From Tillus elongatus (taxonomy: Eukaryota > Arthropoda > Insecta > Coleoptera > Cleridae): a stretch of 64,000 bases of DNA. The notes under the pieces are model-generated. The model was not told the origin of the DNA, did no database searches, and saw only the letters and a program-made list of their open reading frames with translations. The stretch covers positions 164,326,118 to 164,390,117 of the forward strand of contig OZ023265.1 in the NCBI GenBank assembly GCA_964006375.1, written 5' to 3'. Of the stretch, positions 1 to 52,377 are shown in pieces. The position numbers and the translations under genes are program-made. The first letter of the stretch is position 1. Each line of letters starts with the position of its first letter.

Positions 1-181
1 CTCATTAATTTTTCCGGTTTATACCTTTTTGGGAGACAATATTTTTGGGGGACTTTGGGGTGTATAACCGCTAACCTTCTTCTTTTGTTATAAAGTTGTG
101 ACAACTCTTTAAACTACTTTTCACCTCGGTAATCATTTTTGGTAGAGGGTTTTTATTTAGTTTTCTATACGGTTCTGTACG
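1..181 (-). pseudogene. Penelope-like element RT, inverted N-terminal piece
   Basis: Read on the minus strand, this stretch encodes a segment containing NPLPKMITEV followed by KSCHNFITKE. It matches, piece for piece, the better Penelope-like reverse transcriptase relic at about 21.5-21.7 kb (NPLPKMISEV, MRCHNLITKD). A stop follows soon after, and the rest is frameshifted. It belongs to the region just upstream of the RT finger motifs and would have worked in RNA-templated copying of the element. At about position 181 the sequence switches abruptly to the C-terminal half of the same protein on the plus strand. The left end lies outside the window. Family assignment is by motif pattern; the element is certainly non-functional. 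Confidence 0.6.
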
Positions 182-572
182 GATTTAGAAAATGAAAGTG
201 AGTATTTTTATAGAGTATGGTTTCGTTATGTGGACGATATTTTTGCAGTGTGTAACATAAATATATGCAAAGTAGATGATTTTAATAAAAGACCCAACTG
301 TCAATTTGATTCAATAAAATTCACCCACGAATTAGAAATTAACAGTAAACTTACTTTTCTAGATGTACTAGTTATTTAAAATAATAATTCCCTTGAACAT
401 GATGTCCACATGAAGGTAACTACCACTTTATGTTACTTTCCAAATGACTCACGTCATACGTTTGCACAAAAAACGGGCGGTTTAAATTTCTTTGTAAATA
501 GATTAATAACATTTCCCTCAAGTAAAATTACATATAGTGGAGAATTAAAGTACATTAAACGTGGCTAAATAT
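182..572 (+). pseudogene. Penelope-like element RT, C-terminal piece
   Basis: The plus-strand frame reads through YFYRVWFRYVDDIFAVC, which holds the reverse transcriptase catalytic box (YVDD) in the context typical of Penelope-like elements. It continues with FTHELEINSKLTFLDVLVI, then an in-frame TAA at about 381. After the stop the same frame resumes with HDVHMKVTTT, FPNDSRHTFAQKTGG and VNRLITFP, the usual thumb-side region of these RTs. The enzyme would copy element RNA into DNA at a nick or chromosome end. The GIY-YIG endonuclease normally following the RT is not visible; an A-module repeat starts at about 637. The stop and the missing flanks make this a dead fragment. Confidence 0.8.
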
Positions 573-636
573 AACAAATATTCAGAACAAAGAAAATCTT
601 AGAGATATCCACGACATTCAGAAAAGATAAAAAAGT

Positions 637-2289: not shown

Positions 2290-2882
2290 AGCGATGAACG
2301 AAATAATTTTTTCCCTTACAAACATGTGTTTTAATTCAATGAAAAATGCAGAAATGCAATCATATAAGGGGTGTTTTGTTAAAAAAAGAAAGTGTGTATC
2401 ACCAACGACTTATGGGCCACCCTGCTATTCTCAAAATAATTATAGTTGTATAAGATGCAGCTCAAAACACCCTATAATTAACGTATAACATTTTTGCTCG
2501 TATCTTGTACATAAACAAAAACATTGAGTTTTACCGTAGAAATGAGTCACCCTGTAAAAGTGTAAACAGACAAAAACTGAAACTTACCCGGTATGTGGAT
2601 TTTAGGGGTTCTAGTTCTCGCTCATTTGAAGACATGTTTTCAAAACTCATAAGTCGCGGTCTTCTCAAAAACGAATTTCTTCTACGAAAATTTGCTAAAA
2701 GACTATTAAACCATAAACTCTATAGTTGAAACTACTGCCAAAGTATCAAAAAGAAAACCCAACATTTTCCCGGAAAAACTAGTCAAAATTTCCTGGCTAA
2801 CGAACTTATCCAAGCCACGTGCAAAAGGAAGGTACCTACCAAATTTCATCACAATCGGGCTATTATTTTTTAAGTTATCAGT

Positions 2883-2951
<69 letters not shown>

Positions 2952-2990
2952 TTAGTGAATTTTTACTTTTACGAAAAATTCCTTATATCT
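2290..2990 (+). mobile_element. Composite repeat, C-B modules, copy 2
   Basis: The C module (ACCAACGACTTATGGGCC, TAAGATGCAGCTCAA, ACACCCTATAATTAACG) is followed by B (CGCTCATTTGAAGACAT, CCTGGCTAACGAACTTAT, AAAAGGAAGGTACCTACC). It then reaches AAGTTATCAGTGGGA and a (TA)n tract at 2886-2949. The end shows ATTAGTGAATTTTTAC. The A module is missing here. Confidence 0.6.
2886..2949. repeat. (TA)n tract 2
   Basis: Uninterrupted TA dinucleotide at the junction AGTTATCAGTGGGA / CATTAGTGAATTT of the B module. Confidence 0.97.
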
Positions 2991-3130
2991 CATTTTATCT
3001 GTTTACTTCTAGATTTACCGTACTGGTTTATTCTCTAAGCTGTTCTGTCTCTTCTTTATCCTTTATCTTATACACATTCCACATCTCCCTTACGCTTACA
3101 AAATATCTTACTAAAACATTAAAGAAAAAA

Positions 3131-4322
<1,192 letters not shown>

Positions 4323-6180: not shown

Positions 6181-6225
6181 TACGGCATATTAGTAAAGTT
6201 AATACTTTAAACTTACACAGACATG

Positions 6226-6361
6226 TAAGACTAGATGCATTCTCGCAACGATTAGAACCTTGGACCGGTTTCGCTCTCATTAGTATGCCGTACTGAAGAG
6301 CTCTAATGAGAGCGAAACCGGTCTACGGTTTTAATTGTTGCGAGAATGCATCTAGTCTTAC
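6226..6361. repeat. Near-perfect palindrome around hammerhead unit 1
   Basis: The left arm begins GTAAGACTAGATGCATTCTC and the right arm ends with its inverse. The arms are about 58 bp with a few mismatches, and the spacer is about 19 bp holding the TATGCCGTACTGAAGAGCT segment. The left arm is an inverted copy of only the 3' half of the hammerhead unit (GAGAGC GAAACCGG onward), so it lacks the CUGANGA box. In RNA this arm would compete with the ribozyme fold. Confidence 0.85.
6275..6342 (+). ncRNA. Type I hammerhead ribozyme 1 (retrozyme-like)
   Basis: The hammerhead core is complete: CTGAAGA at 6293-6299, stem II GCTCT-AATG-AGAGC, then GAAA. Next comes ACCGGT, a self-complementary minimal stem III, and GTC at 6321-6323. 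Cleavage is predicted after C6323. Stem I pairs CCGTA just before the core with TACGG just after the cleavage site. After a small internal loop there is an outer helix with one bulge (CATTAG with TTAATTG). Position 7 of the core is A, which the consensus allows. The tiny stem III suggests efficient cleavage only as a dimer, as known for hammerheads of this class. RNA activity is inferred, not shown. Confidence 0.82.
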
Positions 6362-6627
6362 ATACTTTGTCCCTATATTGGGGTAGAAATGGGCCAGGGC
6401 TGACAATTTTGTAAATTGTTAGTTGTATACAGTCTATTTTTTTGACACTTTGTGTTATTTGGAGCTGGCGTGACAACATACTACTTGGTTCCGCAACTAG
6501 GTGACGGCACGTCCACCACTCACTTAGTATTTTAAGGCTGGCTATACTATAGCCGTATTACTTTTGGTGCATTTTTGCTACAATTAGTATGCCGTACTGA
6601 AGAGCTCTAGTGAGAGCGAAACCGGTC
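6324..6627 (+). mobile_element. 304-bp retrozyme-like monomer between two ribozymes
   Basis: The two predicted cleavage sites (after 6323 and after 6627) are exactly 304 bp apart. Transcription across both would release a 304-nt RNA with hammerhead-type ends, ready for circularisation. The monomer carries ATGCATCTAGTCTTACATAC, CCCTATATTGGGGTAG, GCTGACAATTTTG and GTTCCGCAACTAGGTGACGG. It has no open reading frame of note. Animal retrozymes are tandem repeats of a few hundred bp with type I hammerheads that depend on another element's reverse transcriptase; this matches that layout. Whether it is transcribed is unknown. Confidence 0.72.
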
Positions 6628-6645
6628 TACGGTTCTAATTGTTGC
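6577..6645 (+). ncRNA. Type I hammerhead ribozyme 2 (retrozyme-like)
   Basis: The better preserved of the two. Stem I outer helix CAATTAG (6581-6587) pairs perfectly with CTAATTG after the cleavage site. The internal loop is TATG opposite TT, and the inner helix CCGTA pairs perfectly with TACGG. The core CTGAAGA starts at 6597. Stem II is GCTCT-AGTG-AGAGC with all five pairs intact. GAAA is followed by the palindromic ACCGGT and the cleavage triplet GTC (6625-6627). Every base of the catalytic consensus is present. The loop II change relative to copy 1 (AGTG for AATG) leaves the helix untouched. Confidence 0.88.
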
Positions 6646-6845
6646 GAGCATGCATCTAGTCTTACATACTTTGTCCCTATATTGGGGTAGAAATGGGCCT
6701 TCGCTGACAATTTTGTAAATTGTTAGTAAGTTGTATACAGTCTCTCTTTTTTGACACTTTGTGTTATTTGGAGCTGGCGTGACAACATACTACTTGGTTC
6801 CGCAACTAGGTGGCGGCACGTCCACCACTCACTTAGTACTTACAC
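6628..6845 (+). mobile_element. Second retrozyme-like unit, 3'-truncated
   Basis: A direct repeat of the 304-bp monomer from the cleavage site to ACTCACTTAGTAC. It then breaks into unrelated or B-like sequence (GAGGTCCTAGTACGCGC). Identity with the first unit is high, with a 4-bp insertion near TTGTTAGTAAGTTGTATAC and scattered substitutions. Confidence 0.7.
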
Positions 6846-7655
6846 ATACCTTGAAAATCGATTTTTGAGGTCCTAGTACGCGCACATTTGAAGAATTCTT
6901 TCGAAGGTGTTACCATCGATATCTCTATTATCAAAAAAATCTTGCGCTGTAACTCCTTTTGAGAAAAATGCCCAAAACTCAATTTTCTATGAAGCTAAAG
7001 AACTAAATTTTGCTATATCTGTAGATACTGCCAGTCTCTTTAAAATAAACTTGTATTACAAATTTCATTACAGTTATACAAAAGATTTCCAGAAGGAAAT
7101 TTCATTCATATTTAGAAAAGTAAAGTATCTGCCAAATTATAAACGTTATTTTTCCTTATTAATCGCTAGTGTATGATTTCGTTTTAGTCAACCTAATCAA
7201 ACCGGTTTTTTCAATATCAACAATAACAAAATTATAATTTCAGATTCAAAGGTAACAAACTTATTTAGGCGTTTTAAACAAAAATTAGATCTTGTTCAAA
7301 ACGTATGAAATCGGTGCACTATTGGTTCTCAAAATGTCAAAATAAAACATAAAAAAACCAACATTCATCGAGCTGGATTCAATCGCGTAACCTTCTGATT
7401 AGGGGGCAAGCGCGATGCTACGCAATCTAGACCCACGTCAACTAACGTTTTATTTACGTGATACTTTATATCGGCTTCATGCCCGGGATATTATATTCAG
7501 AGTATACGTAACAATTAATTACATAATTAGTAGAATTACCATCGAAACACATCGCACGACTAGCTCGGTCTTATATGACGCCTTTAAGCATAAATATAAA
7601 AGAAACCATTTTAGAATCACGTTCATAGAGACTTACCTTGATTTTGCTTACAGCT
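6846..7655. other. No gene; B-like relic at the start
   Basis: The first ~65 bp (GAGGTCCTAGTACGCGC to CGATATCTCTATTA) are an old B-module variant. The remainder is AT-rich. The 89- and 98-codon open frames here have no recognisable motif. Confidence 0.4.
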
Positions 7656-7765
7656 CTAGTTTACACAAAATGTTATATATAGAGACTGTTTACAACCAAC
7701 TAACAATTTAGTAAATTGTCAGCCCTGGCTCATTTCTTTTATAATACCGGGACAATGTTTGCGTC
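7655..7765 (-). mobile_element. Inverted retrozyme-unit fragment without ribozyme
   Basis: Read on the minus strand this contains GAGCCAGGGCTGACAATTTA, then AAATTGTTAGTTG and AACAGTCTC. It parallels the middle of the 304-bp unit (GGGCCAGGGCTGACAATTTT, TTGTTAGTTGTATACAGTC). The hammerhead part is absent, so this is a partial, diverged third copy. Confidence 0.55.
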
Positions 7766-14705: not shown

Positions 14706-16562
14706 ATTTAACATATTCTTCTCGAATATATGTGGCCTAAATTCTAACCTGAACTCCGCCCACCATTTCCTTGAGGCTAATAGGCCTCAACTCCTCTTCC
14801 TCACTGAAACCCAAATCAGTGCTAAACAGCCACTAATCACCTTAATTTCCCGGGGTATGAACGCCTTACTTCCTTTATATTGCATGGAGGACTGTGCGCA
14901 TAGGTCCGTAGCAATCTACCCTGCACCACACTCCCCAATTTGGAAGCTGGAAGAAAAGACATACTTTGGATGAAACTCTCTCAGGGCTGCAACTAAATTC
15001 ATTTGTTGCATTTACCGGTCGCCCTCTGACAACAACTTTGTCCAGCTCTTCGACTACCTTTCTGAAATAACCGTCCATCTGATTTCTGAATATACTTCCT
15101 CCGAGGTCACTACTCTTGGTGACTTCCATGTCCATCATAAGGAATGGCTAGGATCTTCAAAAACCGATCCACAAGGGAGAGCAGCGGAAGCCTTCGTAGT
15201 CAGCAATTCTTCAGCCAATATGGTTCAGCAACCTACTTACTTTCCTCGCATCCCAACACACAGCTCAAATCCCTTGGATCTGCTTCTTACTACAAAACCT
15301 GAACGCTATAAGACATCAGTTACCGCCTCCTTGGTCGCTCAGACCACGGCATGGTCACTGCTTCCTGCGCACTGCAACCCGAGGTCACACAGTCATCACA
15401 CCCACGTATCGTTTGGCACTACAACTGGGACGAAATGCGGGATTACTTTTCCTCATTTCCATGGGCGTCTGTCCGCTTCTCTCATCCTGCTGGCATGGAA
15501 TTATTAATCCACGTACACAGAAAACCTCTTCAGCCACTCAAAAGCGCTGGTTCTCTAAATCCTGTGACAAGACCAGACTTGAAAAGGTCAAAGCTCACAA
15601 AACGCTTCTACACAATCCCAGTCAAGAAAACCGCCAAGCATGTTCGCATTTTTTCTGAGGCAAAAAACTGGTTTATAAACCACATCAAAGACAATGTCCT
15701 CTCAAGCTCCAACGGCAGCAAACCCTTCTGGACTTTTGCTAAATCTATTACAATAATTTCTGCAAGAGCACGTTTTCACCTCTTGTTTCAGGGGATGAAA
15801 TTATTTCGACCGCCCTGGACAAGGGTGAACTTTTTGCCTCGTTGTTCGCCGGCAATTATGCTCTCAACCCACCTTCAAATGTTCAACCACCAACAGTCCC
15901 CAATGTCGCGCATAAAATGATGGATATTATTTTTAAAACTAAAAAAGTACGAATGGTGCTCTCTTCTCTTAATACCAGGAAAGCCTCTGGCCTTGACGAG
16001 ATCCCAGCAATTGTACTCAAAAAATCCGCACCAGAAGTTGCTCCTGTCCTGACTCGTCTGTTTCAGACATCTTACAATAGAGGCATATTCCCTAGTAACT
16101 GGAAAACTGCTCGAGTACAACCGGTCCCGAACAAAGGATCCAAAGCGCTTCCTAGCAACTACAGGCCTATTTCTTCCCTTCCAGTCGTCGCTTAAGTGAT
16201 GGGAAAGTATATAAACACCGAATTACTAAAATGACTTGAAAAACACAGTCTAATCCACGACAGGCAGTATGGATGCCGACCTCCTTTCCTTTGTCACCCT
16301 TTCTTGGAACAGGTCTATGGAACTACACGGTGAATCCCAGATTGTCGCTCTAGACATATTCAAAGCATTCGACCAGGTCTGGCACGCAGCGCTGCTTAAT
16401 AAACTTCCGGCCTTCCTCTCCAACCGGAGCCTTTCTCTTGTCGTGGACGGCCACTCCTCTAAACTGTATCCAATTAATGCAAGAGTCCCTCAAGGTTCAG
16501 CTTTAGCCCCTACTTTGTTTCTTCTCCACATCAATGACCTCTTCTCTAGCACATCCAACCCA
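14706..16562 (+). pseudogene. Jockey/CR1-type LINE ORF2, endonuclease plus RT (copy 2)
   Basis: The most complete LINE of the window. The APE endonuclease begins near 14708 (FSNICGLNSNLNSAHHFLEA, then LLFLTETQIS with the catalytic Glu). After a frame change at 15006 it reads CCIYRSPSDNN and GDFHVHHKEW, where His replaces the Asn of the usual GDFNAH. LDLLLTT follows. RT parts are NTRKASGLDEIPAIVLKK, TSYNRGIFPSNWKTARVQPV, NYRPIS, motif A ALDIFKAFDQVWHAALL and motif B PQGSALAPTLF. The enzyme nicks target DNA and primes reverse transcription. Two internal deletions (after HDRQYG and after NKLPA) and several frameshifts disable it. The YADD box and everything 3' are lost at the junction with an A-module piece at about 16562. 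Confidence 0.85.
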
Positions 16563-17531
16563 TATGTCTCTCTAATGCAAGCAGGTATTAATCTGGTTAC
16601 CGGTATATCCTATATAGTAGAAACAATGTACCATATTTTATCAAAATAACTTGCTGTTTGAAAGCGTACAAAAATTTTCCGAAAGTAAACTTAAAATGTT
16701 TCCGAGAAAACTGGTTTCCCATCCAACAAACCTTGGGTTAATAGAAAATTGAGTTATTGCAATTTGAAGTATTTAATGAAAATTCGATACGAAAAGACAC
16801 TTACTGCCTCCTGATTTTTTTTCTTACAAACATGCATCATAGTTCGATAAAAAATGCAAAGATGCAAAAATGCAATAATATAAGTGGTTCGAAAAAAATT
16901 TGTAGCTATCACCAACGACTTCTGGGCGACCTGTGATTGTTAAAATTTGATAAGATGCAGCTCAAGACACCCTATAATTAACGTATACAACATTTTCTCG
17001 CATCTTTTATAATAACAATTATATTGAGCGTTACCGTAGAAATTCGTCACCTGTATATATGTAAACGGATAAAAACTGAATGTGAATCAAAAGTCGCGGT
17101 CTCTGCATTAACGAATTAGTTAAAAATTATAAACCGTTAACCCATAAACTTAATTAAAACTACTATTTTTTTTGGAAATATTTTAGTAGAATGAAGAACA
17201 ATGACGGTTGAAGCTGAAACTTAAGGGGTTGCTGAACACTCTTCTTGCGACGTTTTCTTTACATAACAGGTATTGAAGCTGAAACTTAAGGGTTTGCAGA
17301 ACCCCTTTTTTTCTTTAAATGACAATAACGTTTTTATCTTTAAACTTACAGATTTAAATTTTGGTACATGGTTCACTGTTTATAATACAAACACGCGTAT
17401 ACAAAATTTATATATATAATTGAAACTGACCCTGGATATGGGTTCTAGTTCGCGCTCATTTGAAGAAATTTATTCAAAATTGAAAAGTTGTGATCTCCTC
17501 ATTAGTGGATTTTTTAAAGAAAATTCACTAT
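16563..17531 (+). mobile_element. Composite repeat A(right half)-C-B, copy 5
   Basis: Starts inside the A interior (GCAAGCAGGTATTAATCTGG) and passes its right end near 16815. It continues through C (CATGCATCATAGTTCGATAA, ACCAACGACTTCTGG) and a shortened B. In place of the long (TA)n of other copies there is only TTTATATATATAATTGAAAC near 17408, so this copy shows the unexpanded state. Ends with TTAGTGGATTTTTTAAAG. Confidence 0.65.
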
Positions 17532-18353: not shown

Positions 18354-18740
<387 letters not shown>

Positions 18741-19520: not shown

Positions 19521-21024
19521 TTTTTATTTATTTCAACAACACACCACAAGGGCTTACAGCCTAAATACTATCGTACCGTGGGTGTCGACAATGAGGAAAG
19601 AGGCAACTTGTTAATTCTGGACTTGAAGGTTTGGAGGAGAAGGAAAAACATGTGCCGGCAAGGAATTCCACAACTTGGAAGTCCTCGGGACAAAAGATCG
19701 GGCATAACAAGATGTTCTATGTTTGGTGACCTGGACAGTAAAATGGTACAGATCTGGTAGATCTGTTGGGGACAGCAGGTGGAGGAACTATGGAAGAAAG
19801 CTCCTCTGAGCAGAGCTTGTGCAGATATCTATAAAATAGAGAGAGGTCACCAACGACGAGTCGGTGGGCAATAGATGGCAGCCTTTGGGTGAGGGTAGGG
19901 TGTATAGCTTTCTTCTGAATGGAGTCCAGGATAGCGAGTGTAGAAGCGCTAGCGGCACCCCAGATGTGGGAGCAGTATTCGAGGTTTGGCCTTATTTTTG
20001 AAGTATATAAGGTATAGAGATTAGCTGGTGAAAAGTATTTTCGAGCCCGGAAGAGGAAACCGATCCTCATCTAATTGAGCTAAAGAGACAGGCTTAGAAT
20101 ATTGTATATTTGAGTGACGGGTGCTGTCGTCCGCGTAACTGTGAACTGGGCTGGATGTGCTAGAGATGAGGTCATTGATGTGGAGAAGAAACAAAGTAGG
20201 GGCTAAAGCTAAACCTTGAGGGACTATTGCATTAATTGGATACAGTTTAGAGCAATGGTCAGCCACGACAACGAAAAAACTCCAGTTGGAGAGGAAATTT
20301 GCTGTCGAGGTACAGAGTTTTGGTGATAGGCCATAGGCCAGCAGTTTATTAAGCAGCGCTGCGTGCCAAACCTAGTCGAATGCTTTGGATATGTCTATAG
20401 CGACAATCTGGGATTCACCATGTAGATCCATAGAGTTGTTCCAAGATTGGGTGACAAAGGAAAGGAGGTCGGCAGTTTATCTGCGCTGGCGGAATCTATA
20501 CTGCATGTCGTGGATTAGATTGTGTTTTTCAAGAAATCTTAGTAATTTGGTGTTTATATACTTTTTCATCACTTTAGAGACGGCTGAAACGAGAGAAAAT
20601 GGCCTGTAGTTGCTAGGAAGCGCTTTGGATCCTTTCATGGGGACGGGTTGTACTCGAGCAGTTTTCCAGTTACTATGGAATATGCCTCTATTGTAAGATG
20701 TCTGAAATAGACAAGTCAAGACAGGAGCAACTTCTGGTGCGCATTTTTTGAGAACAATTGCTGGGATCTCGTTAAGGCCAGAGGCTTTCCTGGTATTAAG
20801 AGAAGAGAGCATCTTCCGTACCTTTTTAGTTTTGAAAATGATATCCTCATTTTACGCGCGACATTGTGGACTATTGGTGGTTGAACATTTGGAGGTGGGT
20901 TGAGAGTAGAATTGCCGGCGAACAACGAGGCAAAAAGTTCAGCCTTGCCCAGGGCGGTAGAAACAATTTCATCCTCTGAGACAAGAGGTGGGAACGTGCT
21001 CTTGCAGAAATTATTCCCAATAGA
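19521..21024 (-). pseudogene. Jockey/CR1-type LINE, RT to 3' end (copy 3)
   Basis: From 5' to 3' on the minus strand: a pre-RT segment (SIGNNFCKSTFPPLVSEDE), an RT start (SSLNTRKASGLNEIPAIVLK, GSKALPSNYRPFSLVSAVSK), then motif B degraded to PQGLALAPTLF. The intact motif C is HSYADDSTRHS. The C-terminal region reads ARKYFSPANLYTLYTSKIRP, NLEYCSHIWGAASASTLAIL and DLSLFYRYLHKLCSEELSS. The 3' end is the family TGGTGTGTTGTTGAAATAAA. Frameshifts and a deletion before QTRHR leave it inactive. Upstream it is cut off by an A-module fragment at about 21030. Confidence 0.82.
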
Positions 21025-21029
21025 TTCAC

Positions 21030-21270
21030 ATATATTCACATTTGAATAGCTCAATTTGCTATTAACCTATAAGGTTGACCAAGAAACGAGTTTTTTCAAG
21101 AACACAATAAAGTTATTTTGATGAAACGTGGCACATTGTTTTTACTATATAGGTTATACTGTTAACCAAATTTGATGCCTGTTTTCTTAAAAAAACACAC
21201 CTATATTTGATATTAACATTTTCATGAAAATTCACTACCATAACGCATTTGCTGCGTCCAGACTTTTTTT
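21030..21270 (+). mobile_element. A module, left-truncated
   Basis: GAATAGCTCAATTTGCTATT, AAACGTGGCACATTG, TTTTTACTATATAGG and the right end GAAAATTCACTACCATAACG, CATTTGCTGCGTCCAGAC. It sits exactly between a LINE fragment and a Penelope fragment. Confidence 0.65.
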
Positions 21271-21274
21271 AACT

Positions 21275-21985
21275 AATGGTGTCAATACGTTAACGTTTCT
21301 TTCATGGGAACACTGGGAAACAGCGAGGTCACATCAAACGATATTAAAACCTCTCCTTTAACCAAGTTAATATTTTTAACTTTATTAATAAATTCAGGTG
21401 AATTTGAGAATGAAAAACTTTTTTGTTTAATAGGCAAGCCTTTAAATTCGTTTGTTAACCATTTCGCTATATTGTACTTCGGGGAATCTATAGCCGAAAC
21501 AATAGGTCTCACCGATTTTATAGATTTTCGGGAGACAATACTTTATAGGAACTTTAGGATTTGAAACTTGTAACTTTTTTGTTAAATCTTTTGTAATAAG
21601 GTTATGACATCTCATTAAATTGTTTTTAACTTCGGAGATCATTTTTGGGAGAGGGTTTCTATTTCGTTTTTTATACGGTCCTGATTCTATTGCGTTATAT
21701 ACTCTTATAATCACTTTTATCTAAAATCACAACCTTATTACCCTTGCCAGCTTTAACATATATTTAGTACACAGGGTTCTTGTTGATTGGGTAACTGACT
21801 TTCAGTAACTTTGTGAATCTATTCACGATTTCTTTGCTCCTTCTTATATCAGATAAAATGTCAAGTTTATCATCTTCACTTTCGTCACAATCACCATAGC
21901 CGCAACTGTGGCGCTGCATTTGAGGACTTGAAGCTCCATCCTTTATCAAGGGCGTAAAATCGCACTTCATCTTGTAATGCTGAAT
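21275..21985 (-). pseudogene. Penelope-like element RT, N-terminal half
   Basis: Minus-strand pieces in order: DDKLDILSDIRRSKEIVNRF, YPINKNPVY, a stop, then KAGKGNKVVILDKSDY (the lysine/glycine/valine block characteristic of Penelope-like RTs). Next are NPLPKMISEVKNNLMRCHNL, VPIKYCLPKIYKIGE, MRPIVSAIDSPKYNIAKWLT and LISFDVTSLFPSVP, which carries the first catalytic Asp of the RT palm. The reading frame changes at least three times. The YVDD half is missing; that half is what survives at 182-572. Penelope-like elements pair this RT with a GIY-YIG endonuclease; none is seen. Confidence 0.85.
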
Positions 21986-33655: not shown

Positions 33656-34830
<1,175 letters not shown>

Positions 34831-37305: not shown

Positions 37306-38545
37306 GATTCATGTCCAAACCCAGCTTTTTCACAAATTCTCGTCGTCTCAATTGTCTTTCAGAATTGTTTGCATTGTATACGACAAAGCTGTTGATGGGC
37401 GCCGTATTCAAAAGTGAAAAAAAGTCAGTCATTGGCCACCTACGACTATTTCACGATACATAATAGTTACTGAAAAGTTCGTCAACCACGTCAACACTAC
37501 CCTTAAAATTATAGAACGTAATTATCACTGGCTTTTTGTCGGCTCCTGTATCCTCGTCGATCCTTTCTGTGTGATGTAAGGATGACAACAACAGAACATT
37601 CTTGCCTTTTCTGGGTATATACGACACTAATGTGACGTCTTTCTGGAACGCAAACAACGAACTCTTCTCCTCACGATTTGTCAATTTCAAAAATTGGGGG
37701 GGAATTTCTCTCTTATTTTTCTTTAAAGTACAGACTGATGTTAACTGGTACTCTCCCAACAATCTGGTTACAAGAGAATAACTGGAAAACCAGTTGTCGT
37801 AGGTAATATTGCGTCTAGATCGTTGAAGAGGCTTAGAAATTCTCATGACGATTTCTTCTGGTTTGTTGCTCAAGTTAAAAGGGCCATACGGTTGTTTTCC
37901 AACGTAAATTTCTTGATTTAAGACGTAAAACGTCCATGCATCCACCAGCGCAAAAATCTTTATCCCATACTTGGCGGGTTTATTAGATATAAATTGATGA
38001 AAACTGCATCGTCCCCGAAACGCTTCTAGTTTTTCATCACTTGTGACATATTTGCTAGAAGTGTACACATTCAAACAATTTTCATTGAGTAACTCAAAAA
38101 TTGTTCTAATTGGTGCGAGCTTATTCAACTGACGTCCTTCTGTCCTGGCCTGACTGTTATCGAACGCAAACATTACAGTAACAGACTAAACCTTTTCTGG
38201 CACATGGTTGTCCTGAATATATCGACGCCTAAACCATTTGTGGCCCATAGGTCATCCAAATTTTGTCTTGCTGACTCCAAAACGCTGGATAAATACAAAA
38301 TACCTAATAAATCCTGCAACTCTTCTACAGTGGTGTCTTTCACCAGATGCATTGTATCGGATCGCATGGAATTCTTGGCTTTTTCACGTAGTTTTTCGTT
38401 CGTGAATCTGACAACATCTGACAGCATTGCATCTGTAAAAAACAACTTCCAACGTTCTAATAGTTCCTTGATATTGTCGAACGGTATGACGCCGCCGCGC
38501 TTCCTTTTATACCAGATGACAAATGCTCAAATAATTCCTAACCTA
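37306..38545 (-). pseudogene. piggyBac-type transposase, catalytic part
   Basis: On the minus strand: LLERWKLFFTDAMLSDVVRF (start of the DDE_Tnp_1_7 domain), LQDLLGILYLSSVLESARQN, DLWATNGLGVDIFRTTM, a stop/frameshift near 38173, then DNSQARTEGRQLNKLAPIRT. The first catalytic Asp is in YVTSDEKLEAFRGRCSFHQF, the second in NITYDNWFSSYSL and the third in FKGSVDVVDELFSNY. After a further frame break, RWPMTDFFSLLNTAPINSF and RRREFVKKLG give the usual C-terminal region. The enzyme cuts and pastes at TTAA. All three catalytic Asp are intact and the 240-codon block is long, so decay is recent or modest, but at least two frame breaks make it inactive. No CRD zinc finger is seen. Confidence 0.9.
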
Positions 38546-42433: not shown

Positions 42434-43822
42434 AAAATATTTCAACACACCACGAGGGCTTAGCGCCTAAATACTATCATACCGCGGGTGTCGACAAGGA
42501 GGAAAGAGGCAGCTTGTTAATTCTGGACTTGAAGTTTTGGAGGTTGGAATGAGAAGGAAAAACATGTGCCGGCTAGGAATTCCACAACTTGGAAGTCCTC
42601 GGGAGAAAAGAACGGGCATAACAAGATGTTCTACGTCTGGTGACTTGGACAGTTAAAGGGTGCATTCGCTCTGTTCCCCTGGTAGATCTGTTAAGGGCAG
42701 CAGGTGGAGGAACTATGGAAGTAAGCTCCTCTGAGCAGTGCACGTGCAGATATCTATAAAAGAGAGAGAAGTCACCAACGACATGTCGATGGGCAAGGGA
42801 TGGCAGCCTTTGGGTGAGGGTAGGGTCACCGATGAGACGTATATCTTCTGAATGGAGTCCAGGATAGCGAGTGTAGAAGCGGCAGGGGCACCCCAGATGT
42901 GAGAGCAATATTCGAGGTTTGGCCTTATTTGTGAAGTATATAAGGTATAGAGATTAGCTGGTGAAAAGTATTTGCGAGTCCGGAAAGGTTAACCTAATTT
43001 CTTAGCAGCCGCTTCTGCAATTGATGTGACATGTTGGTGCCAATTGAGATTTCGATCCACAGAAATGCCAACAAGTGAAAAGGACTCATTACTTTGTTGT
43101 TCATTACCTGGTTGTTCATTGTGATGGGTCTTGGGCTGGTGTATCTCTTATGAGATAGAAAGCAAGACTGATATTTGGTGTAGTTGAATTGTACAAGATT
43201 TCTACTTCCACAGACTAATATTTTTTGGAGATCCACAGAGACAGAACCCTCCAGAAGTCTGCGATCCTCATCTAATTGGGCTAAAGAGACTTAGAATATT
43301 GTATATTTGAGTGGAGGGTGCTGTCGTCCGCGTAACTGTGAGCTGGGTTGGATGTGCTAGAGAGGAGGTCATTGATGTGGAGAAGAAACAAAGTAGGGGC
43401 TAAAGCTGAACGTTGAGGGACTCCTGCATTAATTGGATACAGTTTAGAGGAATTGCCATCCACCACAACAGAAATACTCCAGTTGGAGAGGAAATTTGTT
43501 GTCCAGGTACAGAGTTTTGGTGGTAGGCCATAGGCCGGAAGTTTATTAAGCAGCGATGCGTGCCAGACCTGGTCGAATGCTTTGGATATGTCTAGAGCGA
43601 CAATCTGGGATTCACCGTGTAGTTCCATAGACTTGTTCCAAGAATGGGTGACAAAACAAAGGAGGTCGGCAGTTGATCTGCGCTGACGGAACCCATACTG
43701 CCTGTCGTGGATTAGCCTGTGTTTTTCAAGAAATTTTAGTAATTCGGTGGTTATATACTTTTCCATCATTCTAGAGACGACTGAAAGGAGAGAAATAGGC
43801 ATGTACTTGCTAGGAAGCGTTT
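42434..43822 (-). pseudogene. Jockey/CR1-type LINE, RT core to 3' end (copy 4)
   Basis: Carries the best RT core of the window, one 173-codon frame at 43281-43802: VSRMMEKYITTELLKFLEKH, YGFRQRRSTADLLCFVTHSW, motif A ALDISKAFDQVWHASLLNKL, YGLPPKLCTWTTNFLSN, motif B as PQRSALAPTLFLLHINDLLS and motif C HSYADDSTLHS. It continues with VQFNYTKYQSCFLSHKR, LAFLWIEISIGTNMSHQLQ (the GIS..L.W..H.. thumb), then DPTLTQRLPSLAHRHVVGDF and the 3' end CAACACACCACGAGGGC (inverse). Upstream of 43822 the element is cut off. Frame breaks after HSNIQYSK and in the C-terminal part inactivate it. Confidence 0.87.
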
Positions 43823-44837
43823 CAAGTCGTCACTGGTATTTTCAGAGAAAAGACAATGAAATTTTTAAAGTAATTTCTCTCTTACTTCTTTTCTTGACCT
43901 TTTTGCGCCAAGAAAAGTTAATATTTGTCTGTAATATTTATAGATTTTGTTTAACACACAATATTTTGGTCTTGTGTCCTCCTCTGACCCCCAGTGGCAC
44001 CCAAAATTTGTTATTGTTAAATGTCTAAGATAGACGATGACAAACAAGGAAAATGGTGAGGAATTTGCGTGAAACGATATGTTTCTTTTTTCGCGTGAAA
44101 ATTCGCTGCTAGGGAACATTAAAGGCTTCACAACAATTAAGATAATGTATACTTATCCCCGCGAAAAGCGAGAGTGCCATGGAATTTGTGAATTTTGTAA
44201 TTGTGTGGTAGAAGATCTGACTGGCTACCTCGTGATACTGATCCCTGTAATAGAGCTCAGTGTGTACTAGGTGGGATATGTAATCACCGTGCTAGGTGCT
44301 GCCGGATAAGCAGACATAGACATTCATTAACTGCACAAGTGGTGGTGCCTTGTGCCTTGCCTTGCACGTCGCTCTTTCTTACTTTAATAGCCCCTCTCTA
44401 CACTCTTTACTACCTCAAATTACACTCCTTGCTTCTTCAGATGCACTTTTTATAATCCCTGATTTATTCCTTTTTTCCTTTTCAACCTGTTGCTTACCTG
44501 CTGTTTCCGAGGTTCTAGCAACTTTATAGTACAAAGTGTCGCAGTCTTTCAAATTAAATGTCATCAGTTCATATTAATTGCCGAATACATTGAGTCGAAA
44601 CCTTATTCAAATATATTAGTAGGTATTTGTTGAATTGAAACTCGGAAACAGACTCTTTTTTTCGAACTTCAATTTGTATATTATGTAGAATGTATATACA
44701 TATTCACAATGAAACGGGCCAATGTCACCTAAATGACACGGGTATGTCCATGTATGTCTACTAGTTAAAAAAAAACATAACACAAGCAATCATCAAAACA
44801 ATTAAGAAAATTTGTACTTAAATAGCACACAAAATCA
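43823..44837. other. No recognisable feature
   Basis: Mixed-composition DNA; frames of 84-93 codons carry no family motif. Nothing assignable. Confidence 0.35.
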
Positions 44838-48536: not shown

Positions 48537-49106
<570 letters not shown>

Positions 49107-50295
49107 ACTGACTGTAGCTTGGCTATTTATACCATCCATAGAGATTCTACACCTTCGACAATGTTCTACACCTGTCATTTCTGGTCACTCATGGAAAGAG
49201 AATTCTAGAGCGTTCGCTGTTATCAACACACTTTACAAGCTGCCTGTGACCATAAAAGTGACATAGTTCATAAACTCAATTCTCATAGACGGGTGTGACA
49301 ATGTGAAAAGGGCTGCTGAAGACAGATATTCATGCAAGGCGATATTTTTCGCAGATGTAGACGATCATGCAGGTTTAAATACTAATAAACCACGACTTGT
49401 AGATTGTAATAAAGGTAAATATAATAATTAAATGAGTCATTTCAGAAAAGATTGCGAAACTGAAATAAATCTTACCATATCTTTATTGTCTATCCACAGA
49501 GGCCTTGCTTGTATGATTATTATAGCAAACACAAAAAAATACAAACAATGCCAGACTAGAGAAACGAGTTCAAGTAACGAGTGTTGCTACTTATTTATTC
49601 ATGAAAATGATTATACGCTATTAAATGTATGACAGGGAGATTATATAAAGATATGGAATGTAAAAACTTAAGTAATTCTCACTTAGATCGCTGACTCGCT
49701 GGGGAGTTGAAATTATTACTCACACATGCATTTAACCTAATTTAATTCAATATAAATTAAGTCGGCAGACATAAACAACTAATATACATGTATATTAGAT
49801 CACATTATGTGTATCTATATGTGTAATATAGTTTATTGCCATAACGTCATAAGCAACTGCTTCTTTTGGCGCAGTAAACTTAGAAATAATAGTTATAACA
49901 CTAGTAGCGTTATTCATACATAATAACTGATAGTAAACTGTTCGAAATGACACTTTGCAAACTATATTGAAAAGTACTTACTCTACAATAGAAAACGCAT
50001 TAATTTTTTTAAACAAAATTATATTTATTCAACATAATGTGTCACAAGTCTTGCACATTTAGCAGAACGTTCATAAATCAATTATAGACCATTGCAGCTT
50101 TTTTTATATTGGTCTTCAAATCACCCTCCAACCACACATGACTGCTCTACGGGGCGAGTTTACCAGCCATTTACTTTACTTTAAAAGTATTATGAAGTAA
50201 ACTGTAAACATTATTAACTCGTTTTAACTTTTTATTATTAAGATTACTTGAGTATCTATTTTTGAGTAACTATTTTAGAATACTTGAGTAACTAT
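49107..50295. other. No recognisable feature
   Basis: AT-rich DNA; the 66-codon frame at 49432-49632 has no support. Confidence 0.35.
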
Positions 50296-50299
50296 TCTT

Positions 50300-51976
50300 T
50301 CCGAGGCAAAAAAACTCTTTTAATAACCACATCAAAAAAAAAGTCCTCTCAAGCTCCAACGGCAGCAAACCCTTCTGGACTCTTGCTAAATCTATTGGGA
50401 ATAATTTCTGCAAGAGCACGTTCCCACCTCTTGTTTCAGGGGATGAAATTGTTACTATCACCCTGGGCAAGGCTGAACTTTTTGCCTCGTTGTTCGCCGG
50501 CAATTCTACTCTCAACTCACCTCCAAATGTTCAACCACCAACAGTCCCCAATGTCGCGCTTAAAATGACGGATATCATTTTCAAAACTAAATAGGTACGA
50601 AAGATGCTTTCTTCTCTTAATACCAGGAAAGCCTCTGGCCTTGAAGAGATCCCAGCAATTGTTCTCAAAAAATGCGCACCAGAACTTGCTCCTGTCCTGA
50701 CTCGTCCATTTCAGACATCTTACAATAGAGGCATATTCCCTAGTAACTGGAAAACTGCTCGAGTACAAACCGTCCCCAAATAAGGATCCAAAGCGCTTCC
50801 TATCAACTACAGGCCCATTTCTCCCCTTTCAGTCGTCTCTATAGTGATGGAAAAGTATATAAACACCGAATTACTATAATTTCTTGAAAAACACAGTCTA
50901 ATCCACGACAGGCGGTATGGATTCCGTCAGCGCAGATCAACTGCCGACCTCCTTTCCTTTATCACCCATTCTTGGAACAAGTCTATGGAACTACACGGTG
51001 AATCCCAGATTGTCGCTTAGACATATCCAAAGCATTCGACCAGGTCTGGCACGCAGCGCTGCTTAATAAACTTCCGGCCTATGGCCTACCACCAAAACTC
51101 TGTACCTGGTTAGCAAATTTCCTCTCCAACCGGAGCATTTCTGTTGTCGCGGATGGCCATTCCTCTAAACTGTATCCAATTAATTCAGGAGTCCCTAAAG
51201 ATTCAGCTTTAGCCCCTACTTTGTTTCTTCTCCTCATCAATGACCTCCTCTTTAGCACATCCAACTCAGTTCACAGTTACGCGGGCGACAGCACTCTCCA
51301 CTCAAATATACAATATTCTAACCCTGTCTCTTTAGCCGAATTAGATGAGGATCGTAGACGCGATAAGAAGAGTGAAGATGGAGAATTGAACCAGGCGGGT
51401 TATAGCTATAGTTCTCAATAATTTTAATTAAAATCATATACAGTCCAATCGAGGTCAGCACTTATTTATCGTGCGTCGTGACAGTCTTATGGGGGGTTCT
51501 GTCTGGATCTCCTAAAAATATTAGACTAGGGAAGTAGAAATCTTGTACAATTCAACCTCACCAAATCTCAGTCTTGCTTTCTTTCTCATAAGAGATGCAC
51601 GAGTCCTAGACCCATCATAATGAACAACCAAGTTATTCAAAGTAATGAGACCTTTTCACTTGTTGGCATTTCTGTGCATCTAAATCTCAATTGGCACCAA
51701 CATGTCACATCAATTGCAGAAGCGGCTGTTAAGAAATTAGGTTTCCTCTTCCGGGCTCGCAAATACTATTTTTCACCAGCTAATCTCTATACTACCTTAT
51801 ATACTTCACAAATAAGGCCAAACCTCGAATACTGCTCCCACATCTGGGGTGCTGTTGCCGCTTCTACACTCGCTATCTTGGACTTCATTCAGAAGATAGT
51901 TACACGTCTCATCGTTGACCCTACCCTCACCCAAAGGCTGCCATCCCTTGCCCACCGACGTGCCGTTGGTGACCTT

Positions 51977-52060
<84 letters not shown>

Positions 52061-52377
52061 CTGCACGAGCATTGCTCAGAGGAGCTTTCTTCCATAGTTC
52101 CTCGACCTGCAGCCCTCAACAGATCTACCAAGGAAACAGAGCGAATGCACCCTTTCACTGTCCAGGTCACCAGACATAGAACATCTTGTTATGCCCGCTC
52201 TTTTGTCCCGAGGACTTTCAAGTTGTGGAATTCCTTCCCGTTACAGGTTTGTCCTTCCCCTCCGAACCTCCAAACCTTCAAGTCCAGAATTAACAAGTTT
52301 CCTCTTTCCTCGTTGTCGACACCCACGGTACGGTAGTATTTAGGCTGTAAGCCCTCGTGGTGTGTTGTTGAAATATA
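50300..52377 (+). pseudogene. Jockey/CR1-type LINE, pre-RT to 3' end (copy 6)
   Basis: The longest 3' portion of the family. Pre-RT PFWTLAKSIGNNFCKSTFPP, RT NTRKASGLEEIPAIVLKKCA, a RQRRSTADLLSF-like block, motif A SKAFDQVWHAALLNKLPAYG, and motif B weakened (PKDSALAPTLF for PQGSALAPTLF). Motif C is mutated to HSYAGDSTLHS, losing a catalytic Asp. The thumb has FSLVGISVHLNLNWHQHVTS and the C-terminal region AEAAVKKLGFLFRARKY, NLEYCSHIWGAVAASTLAIL. This is interrupted by (TA)n at 51983-52058, then SFVPRTFKLWNSF and the 3' end TGGTGTGTTGTTGAAATATA. Multiple stops and a foreign ~110-bp patch near 51360-51475 also disable it. Confidence 0.87.
51983..52058. repeat. (TA)n tract 18 inside LINE
   Basis: TA dinucleotide after GACCTTTCTCTCA and before TTTCTGCACGAGC, the same LINE site as tract 17. 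Confidence 0.97.

What the first reader, a model, noticed from the sequence alone, without database searches (positions are those of the whole stretch)
6275..6645. Two tandem type I hammerhead ribozymes 304 bp apart: a retrozyme-like unit
Both copies hold every consensus element: CUGAAGA, a perfect 5-bp stem II, GAAA, palindromic ACCGGU stem III, GUC cleavage triplet, and stem I with CCGUA/UACGG plus an internal loop. Copy 2 adds a perfect 7-bp outer helix. The predicted cuts (after 6323 and 6627) are exactly 304 bp apart with no coding frame between, which fits animal retrozymes (tandem repeats producing circular RNA). The two-pair stem III predicts dimer-dependent cleavage. Sequence and pairing are seen directly; activity and circular RNA are inference.
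Basis: partly seen in the sequence, partly recalled or inferred. Interest (0 to 1): 0.92.

Follow-up and report, generated by a model that had tools for sequence, protein, structure and literature searches.

The report
Head-to-head retrozyme insertion with two starts
A small ribozyme-carrying RNA parasite of an animal genome (probably a beetle) is present in thousands of copies, and the shape of its insertions suggests that it is written back into DNA from two fixed points at once, one for each strand of the broken target, as its larger Penelope-type cousins also seem to be.

Summary
Two type I hammerhead cores (cuts after 6323 and 6627, 304 bp apart) lie in a non-coding repeat; the same 1.72-Gb genome holds 10,709 exact matches of the core pattern (reversed-pattern control 0). 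The window insertion (6223-6837) is flanked by an 11-of-12-bp target duplication and has two head-to-head arms. In 43 sequences examined, 54 of 58 outer ends of head-to-head insertions lie at one of two points of the ~307-nt unit, A (~u37) or B (~u207). Of 29 such insertions 25 have one A and one B end; so do all 21 (of 25 tested) with a clear target duplication. In the predicted circular RNA, A and B face each other across one helix. Penelope-like GIY-YIG elements are abundant here, and copies seen are head-to-head with one short and one tailed end. Best reading: a Penelope-type enzyme starts two cDNAs on one circular RNA, one per target strand. Ribozyme activity, circular RNA and the enzyme are inferred. 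In the resident Penelope RNA the predicted fold does not place A opposite B.

The parts
6211..6222 (+). Left target-site duplication, ACTTACACAGAC (11 of 12 equal to the right copy)
   Evidence: sequence, 12-bp extent read by eye; one search scores the 9-bp exact core ACTTACACA
6223..6283 (-). Minus arm: starts at site A (~u40), runs to ~u287 in stem II
6279..6837 (+). Plus arm, about 1.8 units, starts ~u263 and ends at site B (~u208)
   Evidence: start read by eye; end
6279..6283 (+). ATTAG at the junction, readable as the end of either arm (5-nt microhomology)
   Evidence: sequence, read by eye
6280..6340 (+). Hammerhead copy 1 (core 6293-6323, predicted cut after 6323)
6324..6627 (+). One full unit, cut to cut (304 nt); predicted circular RNA
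6357..6360 (+). Internal copy of start site A (CTTA, u34-37)
   Evidence: position from the ends of other insertions
6523..6526 (+). Internal copy of start site B (CTTA)
   Evidence: position from the ends of other insertions
6580..6645 (+). Hammerhead copy 2 (core 6597-6627, predicted cut after 6627)
6830..6837 (+). Right outer end at site B (CACTTAGT)
6838..6849 (+). Right target-site duplication, ACTTACACATAC
   Evidence: read by eye; for the 9-bp core

Best explanation
This is one insertion of a non-autonomous, non-LTR retrozyme. Transcripts of tandem units are cut by type I hammerheads, probably acting as dimers, and closed into ~304-307-nt circles (inferred). The circle folds into a rod in which two CUUA-containing stretches, A (~u37) and B (~u207), face each other (predicted). 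A Penelope-type RT/GIY-YIG enzyme, perhaps a dimer, cuts both target strands about 9-16 bp apart and starts one cDNA at A from one target strand and one at B from the other. The two cDNAs run apart, sometimes several times round the circle, and their ends are joined head to head. This gives minus arm, plus arm, one A end, one B end and a target duplication. Shown: the insertion anatomy and its recurrence. Inferred: ribozyme activity, circular template, enzyme, dimer, joining step.
For: Two fixed ends: of 29 head-to-head insertions 25 are A/B, 1 is B/B, 3 have an end elsewhere, 0 are A/A; none of the 51 rows is tail-to-tail, one (L041) is minus-plus-minus. Of 25 pairs of ends tested, 21 have a target duplication scoring 9 or more, and all 21 are A/B (L022, split, counted with its outer piece); 2^-21 if ends were chosen independently. 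Arms share a source: the own opposite arm is the closest relative in 11 of 23 loci (9 without ties), chance about 1 in 22 (a 24th, L048, was dropped for short overlap). Arms run through the cut site in 41 of 48 (24 insertions); 24 of these are forced by how loci were chosen, so 17 of the 24 others, one by a single base. L034 has arms of ~1.2 and ~2.5 kb, 99.9% identical. A faces B: u31-37:213-219 and u39-43:206-210 in the L034 and window units; 19 of 30 units show 5 or more facing pairs, 0 of 400 shuffles reach the 12 of the L034 unit, 16 reach 3; in the 30-unit consensus 95% of cells pair against 28-44% slid, with 12 further pair types against 4-9. Penelope link: 150 GIY-YIG matches scored of 14,221 candidates; L060 carries RT plus GIY-YIG and a hammerhead-like motif; 5 of 6 two-ended Penelope-derived insertions have one short and one tailed end (by eye). 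A purified Penelope enzyme cuts and extends both strands and starts internally at two sites (PMC11167929).
Against: In the resident Penelope RNA the predicted fold puts A in a hairpin loop and B in a closing stem, not opposite each other, and sequence 3' of B was not obtained. Of 30 units, L004, L009, L018, L021, L038 and L045 show no facing pairs, L023 shows 1, and four (L025, L051, L027, L042) could not be scored properly because the site motif was not found or was found in the wrong place. Double changes in the A/B helix are few (3) and not above slid controls (0-5). Excess junction microhomology is not significant (16 of 24 with 2 nt or more, simulated 35%; Mann-Whitney p 0.06). No sequence similarity between retrozyme and Penelope element beyond 13-nt matches. 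In 12 of 23 loci the opposite arm is not the closest relative, the window included (rank 12 of 24). For the anole enzyme the paper reports no start-site difference between strands, and that hammerhead cleavage is not needed for insertion in vitro, unprocessed RNA being the main substrate (PMC11167929). Five of 21 single-arm rows end at neither A nor B.
Confidence: 0.6

Rival explanations
1. The template is not a circle but a linear or multimeric transcript with two processed 3' ends near A and B (for example after cutting of the A/B helix); each end primes ordinary target-primed reverse transcription.
For: A and B lie across one predicted helix, where a double-strand nuclease could cut; tandem arms could come from multimeric transcripts; the anole enzyme used unprocessed RNA in vitro.
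Against: The geometry is wrong for an RNase III cut: A ends at ~u37 and B at ~u207 leave u38-42 and u208-212 beyond both ends, while a 2-nt 3' overhang would need B near u212 (inference). Arms up to ~2.5 kb of near-identical units fit a circle more simply.
Confidence: 0.2
2. Self-priming on an antisense template, as proposed in 2013 for head-to-head Penelope copies of rotifers.
For: PMC3846280 (passages read) argues this from palindromes at inverted junctions.
Against: Junctions here lie at scattered unit positions and 21 of the 24 measured overlap by 8 nt or less; a self-primed hairpin does not predict two fixed, different outer ends.
Confidence: 0.08
3. L1-like twin priming by a LINE enzyme (LINE-like ORFs lie in the window).
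For: Gives the same minus-plus order with target duplications (recalled); LINE-like RT frames are present (family recalled, not tested).
Against: Twin priming starts one cDNA at the RNA 3' end or poly(A) and the other anywhere (recalled); here both starts are fixed and internal, and no poly(A) is seen at the listed ends.
Confidence: 0.07
4. DNA-level inverted duplication or a fold-back DNA transposon.
For: Arms are inverted repeats.
Against: The two termini are not inverted repeats of each other, copy number and junctions vary, and target duplications flank the whole two-armed unit.
Confidence: 0.03

Closest known systems
Animal non-LTR retrozymes (Cervera and de la Pena 2020, PMC7229834)
   Same: Type I hammerhead, 150-450-bp tandem non-coding units, many copies, target duplications longer than 4 bp, predicted self-paired RNA
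   Different: Head-to-head arms and two fixed A/B ends are not described in the parts read; 'inverted' occurs 0 times in its main text
Penelope-like elements (PLEs), e.g. rotifer Pen families (PMC3846280, passages) and anole Poseidon PAc (PMC11167929, parts 1-3 of 4)
   Same: Head-to-head arms, tail on one of the inverted ends, 8-10-bp target duplications, hammerhead in the repeat, internal RT starts at two sites, both target strands used
   Different: PLEs encode RT and GIY-YIG and are kilobases long; here the element is non-coding and the two starts are about 170 nt apart
Plant LTR retrozymes (PMC4918200, passages)
   Same: Hammerhead-bounded non-coding elements with circular RNA
   Different: Type III hammerhead, LTRs, 4-bp duplications
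Newt and axolotl hammerhead repeats (PMC7229834)
   Same: 330-350-bp tandem units; one axolotl family with a one-pair helix III and palindromic tetraloop
   Different: Head-to-head order not reported in the sections read; sequences were not compared here

Membership tests
Animal non-LTR retrozyme | Type I hammerhead with complete core | tested here: met
   Rfam HH9 27 bits, below gathering score
Animal non-LTR retrozyme | Tandem units of about 150-450 bp in many copies | tested here: met
   304 bp in the window, 302-311 bp in 30 loci; 10,709 exact core matches
Animal non-LTR retrozyme | No coding frame in the unit | tested here: met
   no frame of 100 aa or more overlaps it
Animal non-LTR retrozyme | Target duplications longer than 4 bp | tested here: met
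   21 of 25 pairs of ends score 9 or more
Animal non-LTR retrozyme | Self-cleavage and circular RNA in tissue | not testable with these tools
   needs in vitro cleavage and northern blot
Penelope-like element (as a member) | Encodes RT and GIY-YIG | tested here: not met
   non-coding unit
PLE-type insertion (works like) | Head-to-head arms, one plain and one tailed end, target duplication | tested here: met
   A/B rule; resident PLE copies
PLE-type insertion (works like) | The resident PLE enzyme starts cDNA at A and B | not testable with these tools
   needs reconstitution
Plant LTR retrozyme | Type III hammerhead, LTR, 4-bp duplication | tested here: not met
   type I order, duplications of 9-16 bp

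The most novel reading that the evidence does not exclude
A dimeric Penelope-type reverse transcriptase starts two cDNAs in opposite directions from the two strands of one RNA helix, one for each strand of the cut target, and rolls them around a circular RNA; the two cDNAs then anneal at their ends and fill each other in, so that no separate second-strand priming is needed. The same rule would explain why Penelope elements in general are head-to-head with a tail on one end only.
Probability: 0.4. Interest if true: 0.87.

Novelty: new variant of a known kind. Interest (0 to 1): 0.73.

Why it matters
A 2020 review states that metazoan retrozymes show no conserved motif that would reveal whose machinery moves them (PMC7761336, passages). 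The two fixed ends with the one-A-one-B rule are such a mark, they point to Penelope-type enzymes, and they name the nucleotides to test. They also suggest a simple cause for the long-standing oddity of Penelope copies: inverted arms with an optional tail on one end.

Tried and rejected
Rejected: mir-1305 match at 6259-6326, which is only the inverted-repeat hairpin, below gathering score. Viral-contig hits L001 and L002: one match each; only L001:1-900 and L002:7500-8100 were read, no second copy seen there. L003: a lone hammerhead-like motif, no self-repeat and no match to the other loci. Excess junction microhomology: suggestive only. Double changes as proof of the helix: too few. Enrichment of cDNA ends at the cut site: 6 of 48 within 10 nt, 3.1 expected.

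Sample limits: the listing holds 100 of 10,709 places, all at the start of contig 1, in 46 clusters; 42 clusters and the window were examined, 4 clusters were not fetched. All were picked because they hold an intact core. Target duplications were scored for 25 pairs of ends known; L005, L054, L055, L057 and L058 were not scored. Junction overlaps used 24 of the 29 head-to-head loci (L006, L022, L027, L057 and the window dropped; L027 and the window overlap by more than 60 nt because the unit is self-complementary there), and 558 of 600 simulations. L061-L063 were picked because their GIY-YIG hits were minus-plus neighbours in the list, so they are no unbiased sample of arrangement; by eye that list holds three minus-plus and no plus-minus pairs within 5 kb. 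The Penelope pieces in L010, L012, L040, L052 and L053 came along unasked.

Full report
Check of the finding. Rfam's closest model is RF02275 (Hammerhead_HH9), at 27.7 and 27.2 bits, E about 2e-4, below its gathering score of 52. The decisive test is the genome: the window lies in a 1.72-Gb assembly of 30 contigs, and the pattern CTGANGAGCTCTNNNGAGAGCGAAACCGGT matches 10,709 times exactly, the pattern read backwards 0 times. The feature is real and is a dispersed repeat family.

Just left of copy 1 lies an inverted partial copy: 6223-6283 is 93% complementary to 6303-6363. The insertion therefore reads as a minus arm followed by a plus arm, head to head, flanked by ACTTACACAGAC (6211-6222) and ACTTACACATAC (6838-6849), 11 of 12 bases equal. 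Of the 100 places listed, neighbours within 1.2 kb are minus-plus 9 times, plus-minus 0 times, and alike 44 times.

Two fixed ends. I numbered a real 307-bp unit from the cut site and mapped it on 42 of the 46 listed clusters of contig 1 plus the window. Outer ends fall at A (about u35-48 by alignment) or B (about u206-217). Of 51 rows, 29 are head-to-head: 15 are B-left/A-right, 10 are A-left/B-right, 1 is B/B (L009) and 3 have an end elsewhere (L006 both ends, L022, L057), so 54 of 58 outer ends are A or B. L022 is split, and its next piece ends at B. L041 has a third arm (minus-plus-minus); its first two arms are B and A. Of 21 single-arm rows, 16 end at A or B and 5 elsewhere (L020, one piece each of L051, L052, L053, and the window fragment at 7651); L052 and L053 look like copies of one region. 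Thirteen single-arm loci were searched for a hidden short second arm; one, L005, has it, with a B end. Target duplications were scored for 25 pairs of ends: 21 score 9 or more; hybrids of flanks from different loci average 3.8-5.5 per locus and reach 9-12 at best in 5 of 25 loci. All 21 are A/B, counting L022 with its outer piece. The four without a clear duplication are L004, L006, L009 and L041; L006 and L009 are also exceptions to the end rule, so they may be rearranged copies.

Template. In 41 of 48 arms (24 insertions) the copy runs through the cut site. At least one arm per locus must do so because loci were chosen by an intact core; of the other 24 arms, 17 do, one of them by a single base. 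L034 has arms of ~1.2 and ~2.5 kb that are 99.9% identical. The two arms of a locus tend to be each other's closest relatives: 11 of 23, 9 without ties, chance about 1 in 22 (L048 dropped for short overlap). In the other 12, including the window (rank 12 of 24), they are not, which age and later mutation may explain. A circular RNA copied by both cDNAs is the simplest template, but multimeric transcripts are not excluded.

RNA structure. The circular minimum-energy fold (-98.6 kcal/mol; 400 shuffles -73.4, sd 5.0) extends stem I into a rod in which A and B face each other. None of 400 shuffles reaches the observed 12 facing pairs, and 16 reach 3. Of 30 units folded singly, 19 show 5 or more facing pairs, 7 show 0 or 1, and 4 could not be scored properly. 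In the 30-unit consensus 95% of cells pair, against 28-44% when slid, with 12 further pair types against 4-9, but double changes are few (3, slid 0-5), so the helix is supported by energy and conservation, hardly by covariation.

Penelope connection. GIY-YIG domains are abundant: 150 scored of 14,221 candidates. L060 holds a 637-codon frame with RVT_1 and GIY-YIG; its closest named relatives among the 120 of 431 listed are from longhorn beetles, so the host is probably a beetle (inference). Its 3' region has a hammerhead-like motif CTGAAGATGTTGACTTGGTCAACGAAACGATC, and L061-L063 have the like. L061, L062 and L063 are head-to-head copies, but they were picked as minus-plus neighbours from the list; L062 and L063 are inverted repeats of at least 3.1 and 4.75 kb. 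Ends come in two kinds, plain (after about GTACTTAT) and with a ~35-nt tail (after TCACATAG or TCACTTAG). Of six two-ended Penelope-derived insertions, five (L010, L040, two in L053, L061) have one of each kind, four of them with 9-13-bp duplications read by eye; L061's duplication is unclear, and the sixth, an old copy in L012, looks tailed at both ends. L052 repeats L053 and is not counted; L062 and L063 were fetched with one end only. Both retrozyme sites, and the Penelope sites in most copies seen, hold CTTA or CATA. This matches published work: rotifer Penelope copies with an inverted pLTR, a 31-bp tail at one of the inverted pLTRs and a 9-bp duplication (PMC3846280, passages), and a purified anole enzyme that cuts and extends both strands and starts internally at two sites that bound the 'tail' (PMC11167929, parts 1-3 of 4 read). 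That paper also reports no start-site difference between the two target strands and no need of hammerhead cleavage in vitro, which does not favour my reading. In the anole RNA the start site at +111-118 faces +148-156 across an internal loop; the second site's position is not given in the text I read, so this is consistent, not shown. In the resident Penelope RNA the fold does not put A opposite B, which counts against making the helix rule general.

Mechanism. The best reading is two-point, target-primed reverse transcription: one cDNA from A, one from B, one per target strand, running apart around a circle, then joined. The joining step by end annealing is a guess; junction overlaps of 2 nt or more occur in 16 of 24 loci against 35% of 558 simulated blunt joins, p 0.06 (5 of 29 loci left out).

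Novelty. The retrozyme is a new member of a known kind. Head-to-head arms with two fixed ends are not described for retrozymes in the texts I read ('inverted' 0 times in PMC7229834; once in PMC4918200, in the abbreviation MITE). Searches for retrozyme plus head-to-head (0 papers), Penelope plus twin priming (3 papers, listing only), Penelope-like plus target-primed plus circular RNA (1 paper, listing only), Penelope-like plus hammerhead plus inverted (10 papers, of which PMC11167929, PMC4918200, PMC7761336 and PMC8490949 were opened) and retrozyme plus insect plus hammerhead plus Penelope since 2020 (4 papers, two opened) showed no such account. Only open-licence papers were searched, and supplements were not.

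Noticed in passing
window 7651-7737: Minus-strand fragment of the same unit (about u38-148, 76-78% identity), no hammerhead; its right edge lies at u38, next to site A.
   Followed up: partly
window 1-622 and 21285-21763: Decayed Penelope-like RT fragments; the first looks head-to-head (minus 3-184, plus 161-622).
   Followed up: partly
L053 about 2804-3087: A Penelope-derived two-armed insertion sits inside a retrozyme's hammerhead stem I, with TTAGTATGCCGTA duplicated (by eye).
   Followed up: partly
window, e.g. 4180-4276, 18357-18471, 33779-33925, 48695-48782: Long (TA)n arrays, 18 rows in 64 kb; translated flanks such as [12 protein letters not shown] recur beside several, as if a mobile element carried them.
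   Followed up: no
window 14974-16649, 19717-21066, 42573-43829, 50266-52336: Broken LINE-like RT frames (LDISKAFDQVWH motif; family recalled, not tested).
   Followed up: no
window 37451-38526: piggyBac-like transposase frames on the minus strand (name recalled, not tested).
   Followed up: no
L003 1481-1560: Solitary hammerhead-like motif CTGAAGAGTCC..GGACGAAACTGTTC, the only Hammerhead_1 match of the genome search (33.7 bits, just under the cut-off); no repeat around it.
   Followed up: partly
retrozyme loci, unit positions u160-200: Inner (5') cDNA ends pile up there (14 of 48 in that 40-nt bin, about 6 expected), just upstream of site B; possibly a stop in the RNA structure.
   Followed up: no
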